From Paracoccaceae bacterium (lineage in GTDB: Bacteria > Pseudomonadota > Alphaproteobacteria > Rhizobiales > Stappiaceae), in contig JABXHV010000100.1 of assembly GCA_013373445.1 (NCBI GenBank), positions 1 to 57,732 on the forward strand: a stretch of DNA of 57,732 nucleotides, in the 5' to 3' direction. Under the pieces are notes generated by a model. That model saw nothing but the letters and a program-made list of their open reading frames with translations. It was not told where the DNA came from and searched no databases. A program made the position numbers and the translations under genes. Below, piece after piece: positions 7,207-8,355 of the stretch. Numbering within the stretch: position 1 is the stretch's first letter; each line of letters begins with the position of its first letter.

Positions 7207-7271
7207 CTGCATTGCACTTTTTGCATGACTGACATGCCGAGAACGCACTAGTTTTATTTCCGCCCCCAAAT

Positions 7272-7283
7272 TATATCTCTCAT
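7272..7283 (+). promoter_or_regulatory. Shared promoter-like element, DUF1127 locus 1
   Basis: TATATC followed by TCTCAT sits 66 bases before the first DUF1127 start. The second locus has TATATATG followed by TCTCAT at a similar distance. No convincing -35 partner is visible. In Rhodobacter sphaeroides the comparable locus uses heat-shock sigma factors, so a non-sigma70 promoter is possible. Confidence 0.35.
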
Positions 7284-7337: not shown

Positions 7338-7487
7338 ATGATCAACACTGTTGTTCGCGGTTATAAGAAATGGTCCGGTTACCATCGTTCAGTGAAAGAG
7401 CTTTCCATGCTTTCTTCACGCGAGTTGAGCGACCTGGGTATTTCCCGCAATGAAATTCGTGCGATTGCACGCCGCGCAGCGGTCTAA
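7338..7487 (+). CDS. DUF1127 micro-protein, copy 1 (CcaF1-like)
   Basis: This 49-residue gene is too short for ordinary gene callers. It reads MINTVVRGYKKW, then a helical Arg-rich half ending ELSDLGISRNEIRAIARRAAV, the hallmark L-x-D-[IL]-G-[IL]-x-R-x-[ED]-I pattern of DUF1127 (YjiS-like) proteins. It is cytoplasmic and strongly basic. The R. sphaeroides homologue (RSP_6037, CcaF1) is reported to bind RNA and to be cotranscribed with the small RNAs encoded just downstream; the same layout is seen here. It shares start, length and core residues with the second copy 580 bases downstream, so the two are paralogues. An AGAG stretch precedes the ATG. Confidence 0.88.
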   Translation: MINTVVRGYKKWSGYHRSVKELSMLSSRELSDLGISRNEIRAIARRAAV

Positions 7488-7495
7488 CACCTAAC

Positions 7496-7534
7496 GCGCC
7501 ATTCAGGTCACCCTCCTCCCAGACCTGAATGCGC
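7496..7534 (+). ncRNA. Anti-Shine-Dalgarno hairpin 1 (CcsR/cuckoo-type)
   Basis: A perfect nine-base stem (7501-7509 with 7522-7530), extended by GCGC/GCGC with a one-base bulge, encloses a 12-base loop carrying CCTCCTCCC at 7512-7520. As RNA the loop is complementary to Shine-Dalgarno sequences. It starts nine bases after the DUF1127 stop. Confidence 0.85.
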
Positions 7535-7540
7535 TGACAC

Positions 7541-7572
7541 TGGCGAGATACTCCTCCTCCCAATTCTCGCCA
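7541..7572 (+). ncRNA. Anti-Shine-Dalgarno hairpin 2 (CcsR/cuckoo-type)
   Basis: The perfect eight-base stem TGGCGAGA / TCTCGCCA (7541-7548 with 7565-7572) encloses a 16-base loop with CCTCCTCCC at 7553-7561. The stem sequence is unrelated to that of hairpin 1, while the loop motif is identical. Confidence 0.82.
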
Positions 7573-7582
7573 AGTCGAAACG

Positions 7583-7616
7583 ACGCCCGCCAACACCTCC
7601 TCCCGTTGGCGGGCGT
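7583..7616 (+). ncRNA. Anti-Shine-Dalgarno hairpin 3 (CcsR/cuckoo-type)
   Basis: A perfect twelve-base stem (ACGCCCGCCAAC with GTTGGCGGGCGT) closes a ten-base loop ACCTCCTCCC (motif 7596-7604). A T5 run at 7620-7624 follows shortly, so this hairpin could also end some transcripts. Confidence 0.85.
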
Positions 7617-7628
7617 TCGTTTTTCTAG

Positions 7629-7653
7629 AGCCCGGTTTCACCGGGCTTTTTTG
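7629..7653 (+). terminator. Terminator of DUF1127 locus 1
   Basis: Stem AGCCCGGT / ACCGGGCT around TTC is followed by T5-6. It closes the transcript unit formed by DUF1127 copy 1 and hairpins 1-3. Confidence 0.88.
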
Positions 7654-8065
7654 TGTCTACGTCTCGCGAAGGTCCGGATGCCGTCGAGACGCTCTTTCTA
7701 CAACCAACGATTCCATACACGGCATTCGAGCTCAAAGACTATGATCAGTCTGCTAGATCGGACGTTCGTTGCTATCACTTGTTTATTTCACAAGCGCCAG
7801 CAGTGACCGACGCCTGTTTTTTCGATGCGAATTCGTACGTTCTCTCGCACCTGCGAGACGAATCGAAATCACAAGACTCCTGAAGGATCAGGGTTTTCCG
7901 AATTAAATTGATTAATAGACCGTATCTCTGCGTTTTCTGCAGGGCTGCTTTGCGCAATTTGCGCTACACCGCACTGCAACATACAGCTATATATGTCTCA
8001 TAGGAATTGACCGGGCCAGTCGTTTTGAAGAGCGCGTTGGCCATAGATACAAAGAGGCCTAAATC
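7654..8065. other. Intergenic region between the two DUF1127 loci, with inverted repeats
   Basis: No gene is visible in about 410 bases. It holds several small inverted repeats: CGTCTCG (7660-7666) with CGAGACG (7685-7691); TCTCGC (7843-7848) with GCGAGA (7853-7858), enclosed by ATTCG/CGAAT; and CCTGA (7879-7883) with TCAGG (7888-7892) followed by GTTTT. The right end carries the promoter-like element of the second locus (7988-8001). An additional small RNA around 7830-7900 is possible but unproven. Confidence 0.45.
7988..8001 (+). promoter_or_regulatory. Shared promoter-like element, DUF1127 locus 2
   Basis: TATATATG followed by TCTCAT sits 78 bases before the second DUF1127 start and resembles the element before copy 1. 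No matching -35 element was found. Confidence 0.35.
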
Positions 8066-8215
8066 ATGATCAACTCACTGACACGCAGCTACAACAACTG
8101 GAAACGTTTCCGTCGCACATACGATGAGCTTTCCAGCCTTTCAAACCGTGAACTCGATGATCTCGGAATCGGCCGTGCGGAAATCAGCCGCTACGCTCGC
8201 CAGTCCGCGAAGTAA
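8066..8215 (+). CDS. DUF1127 micro-protein, copy 2 (CcaF1-like)
   Basis: This 49-residue basic protein reads MINSLTRSYNNWKRFRRTY, then ELSSLSNRELDDLGIGRAEI and an Arg-rich end. It has the DUF1127 signature and the same length as copy 1. Between the copies, the MIN start, Trp12, the SNREL/SSREL block and the DLGI-R-EI core are kept, while flanking residues differ, so this is an old duplication rather than a recent one. An RNA-binding role is inferred from the R. sphaeroides CcaF1 relative. Two anti-Shine-Dalgarno hairpins and a terminator follow directly. Confidence 0.88.
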   Translation: MINSLTRSYNNWKRFRRTYDELSSLSNRELDDLGIGRAEISRYARQSAK

Positions 8216-8227
8216 AACGAATTTCAG

Positions 8228-8257
8228 GCTGTAAGCATCCTCCTCCCAGCTTACAGC
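8228..8257 (+). ncRNA. Anti-Shine-Dalgarno hairpin 4 (CcsR/cuckoo-type)
   Basis: The perfect nine-base stem GCTGTAAGC / GCTTACAGC encloses a 12-base loop with CCTCCTCCC at 8239-8247. Stem length and loop length equal those of hairpin 1, which also comes first after its DUF1127 gene. Confidence 0.85.
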
Positions 8258-8284
8258 TTGGTAGCCCTGCAAGGGGCGTCAAAG

Positions 8285-8322
8285 AAATGCTCGTCAGTAC
8301 CTCCTCCCACTGACGAGCATTT
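8285..8322 (+). ncRNA. Anti-Shine-Dalgarno hairpin 5 (CcsR/cuckoo-type)
   Basis: A perfect fourteen-base stem (8285-8298 with 8309-8322) closes the ten-base loop ACCTCCTCCC (motif 8300-8308), the same loop as hairpin 3, which is also the last before its terminator. Confidence 0.85.
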
Positions 8323-8332
8323 TCTACTTTAA

Positions 8333-8355
8333 GCGCCCTTTGGGCGCATTTTCTT
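8333..8355 (+). terminator. Terminator of DUF1127 locus 2
   Basis: Stem GCGCCC / GGGCGC around TTT is followed by ATTTTCTTT. It ends the unit of DUF1127 copy 2 and hairpins 4-5. Confidence 0.8.

What the first reader, a model, noticed from the sequence alone, without database searches (positions are those of the whole stretch)
7338..8355. Two DUF1127 genes each followed by anti-Shine-Dalgarno hairpins
Five perfect hairpins lie in the 3' parts of two DUF1127 transcripts, and every loop carries the same nine bases CCTCCTCCC. As RNA, this motif is complementary to AGGAGG-type ribosome-binding sites. The arrangement matches R. sphaeroides CcsR1-4 downstream of RSP_6037 (CcaF1) and the cuckoo RNA family of Rhizobiales, so the class is known, but two loci in tandem with 3 + 2 hairpins in one place is worth attention. 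Seen directly: loops, stems, terminators. Inferred: RNA function, DUF1127 as partner.
Basis: partly seen in the sequence, partly recalled or inferred. Interest (0 to 1): 0.85.

Follow-up and report, generated by a model that had tools for sequence, protein, structure and literature searches.

The report
Tandem small-protein genes with ribosome-site-blocking RNAs
Two neighbouring genes for tiny proteins each end in RNA hairpins whose loops could stick to the ribosome-landing sites of other messages; this kind of locus is already known, but both copies also carry a conserved site that probably links them to a LysR-type regulator.

Summary
All five CCTCCTCCC loops lie in real hairpins; the other eight copies of the 9-mer in this genome do not. 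The class is known: Rfam ar14 (NfeR1, cuckoo RNA; CIN1 locus when joined to DUF1127). Unit 1 is above the ar14 cut-off, unit 2 just below. The tandem layout is ordinary: 42 of 61 family genomes have two DUF1127 genes within 3 kb. Stems of hairpins 2 and 3 covary and loops are kept.

Both units have a LysR-type box at a fixed distance from a -10 element; they are the two best sites in the window for a matrix of 59 sites from relatives. A strict box gives 35 sites in 34 of 61 genomes (reversed control 0); 23 lie upstream of DUF1127-1, and 5 of the other 12 precede further C-rich hairpin arrays. This genome has a trxB-LTTR-AbcR-like locus with a similar box.

Best reading: dual-output transcripts (protein plus anti-Shine-Dalgarno RNAs), activated by the VtlR/LsrB orthologue, that dampen ABC-import mRNAs. 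Transcription, binding and targeting are inferred.

The parts
7213..7237 (+). LysR-type (VtlR/LsrB-like) box of unit 1, TGCACTTTTTGCATGACTGACATGC
   Evidence: best site of the window for a matrix of 59 sites from relatives, 35.4 bits on 7209-7238; the only site of this genome that fits the strict pattern
7248..7276 (+). promoter core of unit 1: CTAGTT (7248-7253), 17 nt, TTATAT (7271-7276)
   Evidence: same distance from the box as the -10 element of relatives; the -35 is weak, and the E. coli-type scan finds no promoter
7338..7487 (+). DUF1127 gene 1, 49 aa
   Evidence: Pfam PF06568, 42.6 bits
7500..7531 (+). aSD hairpin 1 (10-bp stem; motif at 7512)
   Evidence: loop ACCCTCCTCCCA
7541..7572 (+). 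aSD hairpin 2 (8-bp stem; motif at 7553)
   Evidence: loop TACTCCTCCTCCCAAT
7582..7617 (+). aSD hairpin 3 (13 pairs; motif at 7596)
   Evidence: loop ACCTCCTCCC; hairpins 1-3 = Rfam ar14 at 7494-7621, 67.9 bits
7627..7649 (+). terminator-like stem of unit 1
7929..7953 (+). LysR-type box of unit 2, TGCGTTTTCTGCAGGGCTGCTTTGC
   Evidence: second-best site of the window, 21.2 bits on 7925-7954; does not fit the strict pattern
7964..7992 (+). promoter core of unit 2: CTACAC (7964-7969), 17 nt, CTATAT (7987-7992)
8066..8215 (+). DUF1127 gene 2, 49 aa
   Evidence: Pfam PF06568, 53.0 bits
8224..8261 (+). aSD hairpin 4 (13 pairs with two G-U; motif at 8239)
   Evidence: loop ATCCTCCTCCCA
8284..8323 (+). 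aSD hairpin 5 (15 pairs; motif at 8300)
   Evidence: loop ACCTCCTCCC; hairpins 4-5 match ar14 at 54.9 bits, below the 58.8 cut-off
8333..8347 (+). terminator-like stem of unit 2

Best explanation
Two tandem, separately promoted, dual-output transcription units of the cuckoo/ar14/CIN1 kind. Each is read from a sigma-70-like promoter activated by the LysR-type regulator VtlR/LsrB, whose likely orthologue lies in this genome in a trxB-LTTR-AbcR arrangement. The 5' part makes a 49-aa DUF1127 protein. The 3' part is released as stable RNAs (3 and 2 hairpins) whose CCUCCUCCC loops pair with GGGAGGAG-type ribosome-binding sites and block translation, mainly of ABC-import and catabolic mRNAs. Shown here by sequence: hairpins, covariation, box, fixed promoter spacing, LTTR gene. 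Inferred: transcription, LTTR binding, processing, target silencing, and any role of the DUF1127 protein on these RNAs.
For: Hairpins real and locus-specific. ar14 match of both units, unit 2 below cut-off. 16 of 22 stem pairs have double changes; 96.4% of cells paired against 34-41% for slid partners. In 30 loci chosen on the DUF1127 protein, not on the loop, 71 of 107 strong hairpins carry the exact loop. Box: TGC-N7-GCA in 71 of 92 upstream regions against 66 of 560 background windows; TGCA-N6-GCAT in 44 of 92 against 1 of 560. Strict box: 35 sites in 34 of 61 genomes, reversed control 0; 23 of 35 lie 109-164 nt upstream of DUF1127-1, 5 of the other 12 precede further C-rich hairpin arrays. 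-10 element at a fixed distance in 66 regions (T 89%, A 91%, T 89%). trxB-like end, LTTR and ar15-like sRNA with GCAT-N3-TG-N3-T in this genome; LTTR in 61 of 61 family genomes. GGGAGGAG-N3-9-ATG: 14 sites, reversed control 2; 5 of the 8 that open an ORF of at least 200 aa are ABC-import parts. Published (passages): NfeR1 has three redundant aSD loops and is activated by LsrB.
Against: No RNA or binding data. The box does not separate DUF1127 units with hairpins (60 of 75) from those without (10 of 16; Fisher p 0.19; an extended form gives 36 of 75 against 3 of 16, p 0.05). The regions are related, so counts are not independent events. Spacing 6 is also raised (29 of 92 against 79 of 560). 8 of the 23 strict matches near DUF1127-1 read on the opposite strand. 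The covariation consensus covers hairpins 2 and 3 only, and one of five measures, further pair types, does not beat shuffles (485 of 500 reach it). The ar15 hit is below its cut-off (30.6 against 40 bits). The 15-nt motif reported for Brucella is, alone, no better in the window than in shuffles (unit 2 13 of 15, unit 1 11 of 15). The matrix was trained on the same class of promoters. PMC7486931 reports LsrB as not involved in AbcR expression in S. meliloti, against later papers. Only 8 genes in the target sample. DUF1127 proteins of Agrobacterium and Salmonella are reported to bind sensor kinases.
Confidence: 0.7

Rival explanations
1. Stress (RpoHI/RpoHII) locus like ccaF1-CcsR1-4 of R. sphaeroides: an alternative sigma factor drives DUF1127 plus CcsR-type RNAs in heat and oxidative stress.
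For: Same gene order and loop motif; the R. sphaeroides operon has an RpoHI/RpoHII promoter.
Against: Both promoters show a conserved LTTR box with a CTATAT-type -10 at fixed spacing; Rfam CcsR1 scores only 21.9 bits against a cut-off of 65.3. RpoH promoters were not searched for with a model of their own.
Confidence: 0.1
2. The hairpins act only in cis: 3' stabilisers or nested terminators of the DUF1127 mRNA, or feedback on its own ribosome-binding site.
For: They lie in the 3' UTR; hairpins 3 and 5 are long and followed by T-rich stretches.
Against: A cis role does not need a fixed nine-base loop. Arrays without DUF1127 but with the box exist. The leaders of the two window genes lack AGGAGG, and their SD-like stretches pair weakly with the loop in a toy duplex (-2.9 and -5.2 against -18.1 kcal/mol for GGGAGGAGG).
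Confidence: 0.1
3. The loops are binding sites for a protein, or mimics of the 16S rRNA 3' end that titrate a 16S-tail factor or free 30S subunits.
For: CCUCCU is shared with the 16S 3' end (recalled).
Against: The part kept in most drifted loops is CCTCCC (12 of 13 C-rich variants, my count); the trailing CCC is not the 16S tail (recalled). NfeR1 loops silence individual mRNAs.
Confidence: 0.08

Closest known systems
alpha-r14 / NfeR1 / cuckoo RNA (Rfam RF02344)
   Same: Hairpins with CCUCCUCCC in each loop and variable stems (three in unit 1); LsrB-type box about 70 nt before the predicted start
   Different: NfeR1 is described as a stand-alone sRNA; here the hairpins follow DUF1127 genes in the same predicted transcript, and unit 2 has two hairpins and falls just below the Rfam cut-off
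ccaF1-CcsR1-4 of R. sphaeroides (CIN1 locus)
   Same: DUF1127 gene followed by adjacent aSD hairpins and a terminator
   Different: RpoH promoter there, LTTR box here; 4 RNAs there, 3 + 2 hairpins in two units here; Rfam CcsR1 model not matched
VtlR/LsrB targets: abcR, atu1667 (A. tumefaciens), BAB1_0914 and BAB2_0512 (Brucella)
   Same: LTTR-box promoter in front of a short small-protein gene; AbcR also uses aSD loops
   Different: PMC7486931 calls atu1667 a small hypothetical protein gene and also a putative sRNA, output unknown; hairpins are not mentioned in the passages seen. Whether those genes carry hairpins was not tested here

Membership tests
Rfam ar14 (RF02344) | score at or above the gathering cut-off (58.8 bits), unit 1 | tested here: met
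   67.9 bits
Rfam ar14 (RF02344) | same, for unit 2 | tested here: not met
   54.9 bits, E 6.7e-9; one of the three hairpins is missing
cuckoo RNA / CIN1 locus | adjacent hairpins (2-4; definition recalled, paper not held), each with CCUCCUCCC in the loop | tested here: met
   3 and 2 hairpins, all five loops exact
cuckoo RNA / CIN1 locus | stems vary in sequence but keep pairing | tested here: met
   16 of 22 pairs with double changes, slid controls far lower; hairpins 2 and 3 only
cuckoo RNA / CIN1 locus | short DUF1127 gene beside the RNAs | tested here: met
   Pfam, both genes
cuckoo RNA / CIN1 locus | processed into stable small RNAs | not testable with these tools
   needs RNA data
Rfam CcsR1 (RF02791) | score at or above the gathering cut-off (65.3 bits) | tested here: not met
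   21.9 bits
VtlR/LsrB regulon | LTTR box GCAT-N3-TG-N3-T upstream | tested here: met
   unit 1 exact; unit 2 only with GCAG in place of GCAT
VtlR/LsrB regulon | vtlR/lsrB orthologue with trxB and abcR beside it in the genome | tested here: met
   assigned by gene order and LTTR domains, not by comparison with a named LsrB; the sRNA is below the ar15 cut-off
VtlR/LsrB regulon | direct binding and activation by the LTTR | not testable with these tools
   needs EMSA and a deletion strain

The most novel reading that the evidence does not exclude
VtlR/LsrB is the dedicated activator of an anti-Shine-Dalgarno RNA regulon across this family and beyond: AbcR, free-standing hairpin arrays and DUF1127 transcripts with hairpin 3' ends share one promoter architecture. 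The small-protein genes reported as VtlR targets would then be, at least in part, precursors of aSD RNAs, so one LysR switch would co-produce a small basic protein and a pool of ribosome-site blockers that turns down nutrient import.
Probability: 0.55. Interest if true: 0.65.

Novelty: new member of a known kind. Interest (0 to 1): 0.45.

Why it matters
The locus is an ordinary member of a published class. The added value is the promoter side: a box that can be searched genome-wide, independently of the loop motif, and that leads to hairpin arrays whose loops have drifted and which the exact-motif pair search had not found (4 of the 12 fetched: L160-L163). It gives a direct test for a question left open in print, namely whether the VtlR-activated gene atu1667 makes a small protein or a regulatory RNA (PMC7486931): in the relatives seen here such genes look like both.

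Tried and rejected
Mobile or dispersed repeat: rejected, only the window copies form hairpins in this genome. A class-wide survey with the hairpin-pair pattern alone was noisy: 23 of 387 genomes matched, the reversed control in 13 (counted by eye); many of those loci have no stems and no DUF1127, so I make no class-wide frequency claim. In the family the same pattern hits 48 of 61 (control in 5, by eye) and in the order 23 of 120 (control in 4, by eye). Co-loss of hairpins and LTTR was looked for and not found: the LTTR is in 61 of 61 genomes, including those without exact-motif pairs. Box specificity for hairpin-bearing DUF1127 units: not significant for the plain box. The published Brucella motif alone: not better than shuffles. 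A looser box pattern gives 40 sites in this genome (reversed control 7); 30 were fetched, and apart from the two window boxes and L123 none of these loci holds a site above 15 bits; the other 10 were not scored. RF02343 was searched by mistake for ar15; it is ar9. The named-genome scan gave three loci only: Aureimonas flava and Phyllobacterium pellucidum, each with DUF1127, two hairpins and a strong box, and Microvirga sp. VF16 with no motif and no box above 5 bits. Of 29 plasmid records with a DUF1127 match I fetched three.

Selection caveats: alignment A3 holds the 20 distinct units with three exact motifs at set offsets, so loop constancy there is by construction; the loop count without that choice is, where of 36 strong hairpins without the exact motif 13 are C-rich variants (my count) and the rest look like terminators or chance. 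The DUF1127 model of my scripts was built from these loci. The 92 regions include the window's own two. The 18 loci without DUF1127 tested for boxes were picked by me; loci with poor stems and overlapping duplicates were left out. The background ORFs are greedy ORFs from held loci (118 of the 120 listed; two dropped); only the 25 commonest Pfam families are printed, so a family not printed may still have up to two members.

Full report
OBSERVATION. The window holds five CCTCCTCCC copies, all on the + strand, 7512-8308, against 0.32 expected. Each is the loop of a hairpin with 8-15 pairs; the eight other copies in the 3.64-Mb genome have stem scores of 2-4. Three hairpins follow DUF1127 gene 1 and two follow DUF1127 gene 2. 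Both units fold better than shuffles, z -7.3 and -5.0.

WHAT CLASS IT IS. Rfam ar14 covers hairpins 1-3 at 67.9 bits and hairpins 4-5 at 54.9 bits, cut-off 58.8. ar14 is the NfeR1 family; passages of PMC10746234 describe three hairpins with the identical CCUCCUCCC loop, variable stems, redundant silencing of two ABC-transporter mRNAs, silencing of ntrB, and activation by LsrB. PMC3927594 (passages) describes RNAs with three and four such loops. [quoted passage not shown] The papers that define the cuckoo family and CcaF1 are not held; their content is taken from citing papers or recalled. So the class is known.

THE TANDEM LAYOUT IS ORDINARY. Of 61 genomes of the family, 45 have a DUF1127-1 relative and 42 have two such genes within 3 kb. 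Of the 30 loci fetched, 28 have a second DUF1127 downstream within the locus; 17 of 30 have three or four motif copies within 170 nt after the matched gene, mostly near 28, 69 and 111 nt (my count). The hairpin-pair pattern is in 48 of these 61 genomes. Numbers per place vary, up to 12 motif copies in L087.

STEM AND LOOP CONSERVATION. On 20 distinct units the consensus structure has 22 pairs, in hairpins 2 and 3 only; 16 have changes on both sides; 96.4% of cells pair, against 34-41% for slid partners and 84% for shuffles; the measure of further pair types does not exceed shuffles. These rows were chosen for exact loops. Without that choice, 66 DUF1127 genes in 30 loci picked by protein give 107 strong hairpins, 71 with the exact loop; 13 of the other 36 are C-rich variants, and 12 of those keep CCTCCC (my count).

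THE PROMOTERS. Upstream of both genes is TGC-N7-GCA, in unit 1 the TGCA-N6-GCAT form reported for the NfeR1 promoter running into GCAT-N3-TG-N3-T, the box proposed for VtlR (PMC7486931, passages). Of 92 upstream regions 71 have TGC-N7-GCA (560 background windows: 66), 44 have TGCA-N6-GCAT (1 of 560) and 28 have the VtlR box (10 of 560); spacing 8 gives 6 of 92, but spacing 6 gives 29 of 92 against 79 of 560. The regions come from related genomes. A matrix of 59 sites from relatives, window excluded, ranks 7209-7238 (35.4 bits) and 7925-7954 (21.2 bits) first and second in the window; the next site that does not overlap them has 9.2. The -10 element sits 58-63 nt after the box start in 66 regions (T 89%, A 91%, T 89%); in the window it is TTATAT and CTATAT, 17 nt after a -35-like hexamer. 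Starts near 7283 and 7999 follow by inference.

HOW SPECIFIC THE BOX IS. TGC-N7-GCAT-N2-CTG-N-CATGC occurs 35 times in 34 of 61 genomes, the reversed control never; in this genome only unit 1 fits it. 23 of 35 lie 109-164 nt upstream of DUF1127-1, 8 of them on the opposite strand, the right half being palindromic (strands compared by eye). I fetched the 12 others: four precede arrays with C-rich loops and no DUF1127 nearby (L161, L162, L163, L165), one a DUF1127-like ORF (my reading; Pfam finds no DUF1127 in it) with four C-rich hairpins (L160), five a small membrane-type protein (L166-L170), two look like chance (L164, L171). Of 18 hairpin-pair loci without DUF1127 that I picked, 12 have TGC-N7-GCA within 500 nt upstream (two of them, L107 and L108, look poor), 7 have the VtlR box, and 6 have neither. 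In three Rhizobium plasmid loci (L151-L153) the DUF1127 gene is followed by a separate array with three or four exact motifs; the best site before the array scores 25.2, 7.6 and 20.4 bits, that before DUF1127 4.2, 22.9 and 10.7. Against specificity for hairpins: DUF1127 units without hairpins also often have the box (10 of 16 against 60 of 75).

THE REGULATOR. The ar15 (AbcR family) hit of this genome, 30.6 bits and below its cut-off of 40, lies next to a 298-aa LysR regulator and the end of a thioredoxin-reductase-like gene, the order that PMC7486931 describes for Agrobacterium (trxB-vtlR-abcR). Its loop has CTCCTCCC and its promoter GCATACCTGCTTTG. The LTTR is in 61 of 61 family genomes. I did not compare it with a named LsrB sequence. 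In print, one paper reports LsrB as not involved in AbcR expression in S. meliloti (PMC7486931), later ones report LsrB control of AbcR1 and NfeR1 there (PMC8844928, PMC10746234; passages).

TARGETS. GGGAGGAG-N3-9-ATG occurs 14 times in this genome, the reversed control twice. Eight open a frame of at least 200 aa: four periplasmic solute-binding proteins, one MalK-type ABC ATPase, acetyl-CoA synthetase, a methylmalonyl-CoA mutase family protein and an amidohydrolase. Among 118 other ORFs no solute-binding family is in the 25 commonest Pfam families (so at most two members each), while ABC_tran is in 10. This fits the published target class of NfeR1, but eight genes are few and solute-binding genes may have strong SDs for other reasons.

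MECHANISM. Best reading: LTTR-activated transcripts that yield a DUF1127 protein and aSD RNAs which silence import and catabolic mRNAs. Whether the DUF1127 protein helps to mature these RNAs (as reported for CcaF1) or binds sensor kinases (as reported in Agrobacterium) is open.

NOVELTY. The locus is a new member of a known kind. My searches, seen as listings and passages, show no held paper that states the VtlR/LsrB box in front of DUF1127-hairpin transcripts. PMC7486931, searched for 'cuckoo', 'NfeR1', 'CcsR', 'Shine-Dalgarno' and 'DUF', has none of them; it calls atu1667 a putative sRNA in its model and says that it is unknown whether it makes a protein or an RNA. PMC12595884 links VtlR to DUF1127 genes and has no 'cuckoo', 'CcsR' or 'Shine-Dalgarno' in its main text. 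Most subscription papers are not held.

Noticed in passing
L123 (G000:C14:20251-20273, - strand): Another strong box of this genome (24.9 bits, among the 30 of 40 loose matches scored), upstream of a 63-aa ORF that looks to me like a distant DUF1127 relative but has no Pfam match to it; no C-rich loops follow it.
   Followed up: partly
L120 (G000:C155:11108-11231): AbcR-like RNA (below the ar15 cut-off) beside an LTTR and a thioredoxin-reductase-like end, with a similar box and a CTCCTCCC loop.
   Followed up: yes
L161, L162, L163: Arrays without DUF1127 in a genus that mostly lacks exact-motif pairs; most loops have drifted to forms such as TTCCTCCC or CTCCTCCC, so the exact-motif pair search did not find them.
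   Followed up: partly
L056 / L087 (G005:C5): Twelve motif copies in four repeated three-hairpin blocks between two DUF1127 genes, which looks like tandem amplification.
   Followed up: no
L166-L170, about 150 nt after the box: In one genus the strict box precedes a conserved 114-aa membrane-type protein (one copy scanned; no Pfam match above cut-off) without C-rich loops.
   Followed up: no
L005 / L174 (G000:C89): A solute-binding protein gene has GGGAGGAG as its ribosome-binding site and a second full GGGAGGAGG about 60 nt further upstream.
   Followed up: partly
L070, L072 (family f22, another order of the class): DUF1127 genes followed by 7 and 8 motif hairpins, with a TGC-N7-GCA site farther upstream; the start codons are uncertain there.
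   Followed up: no
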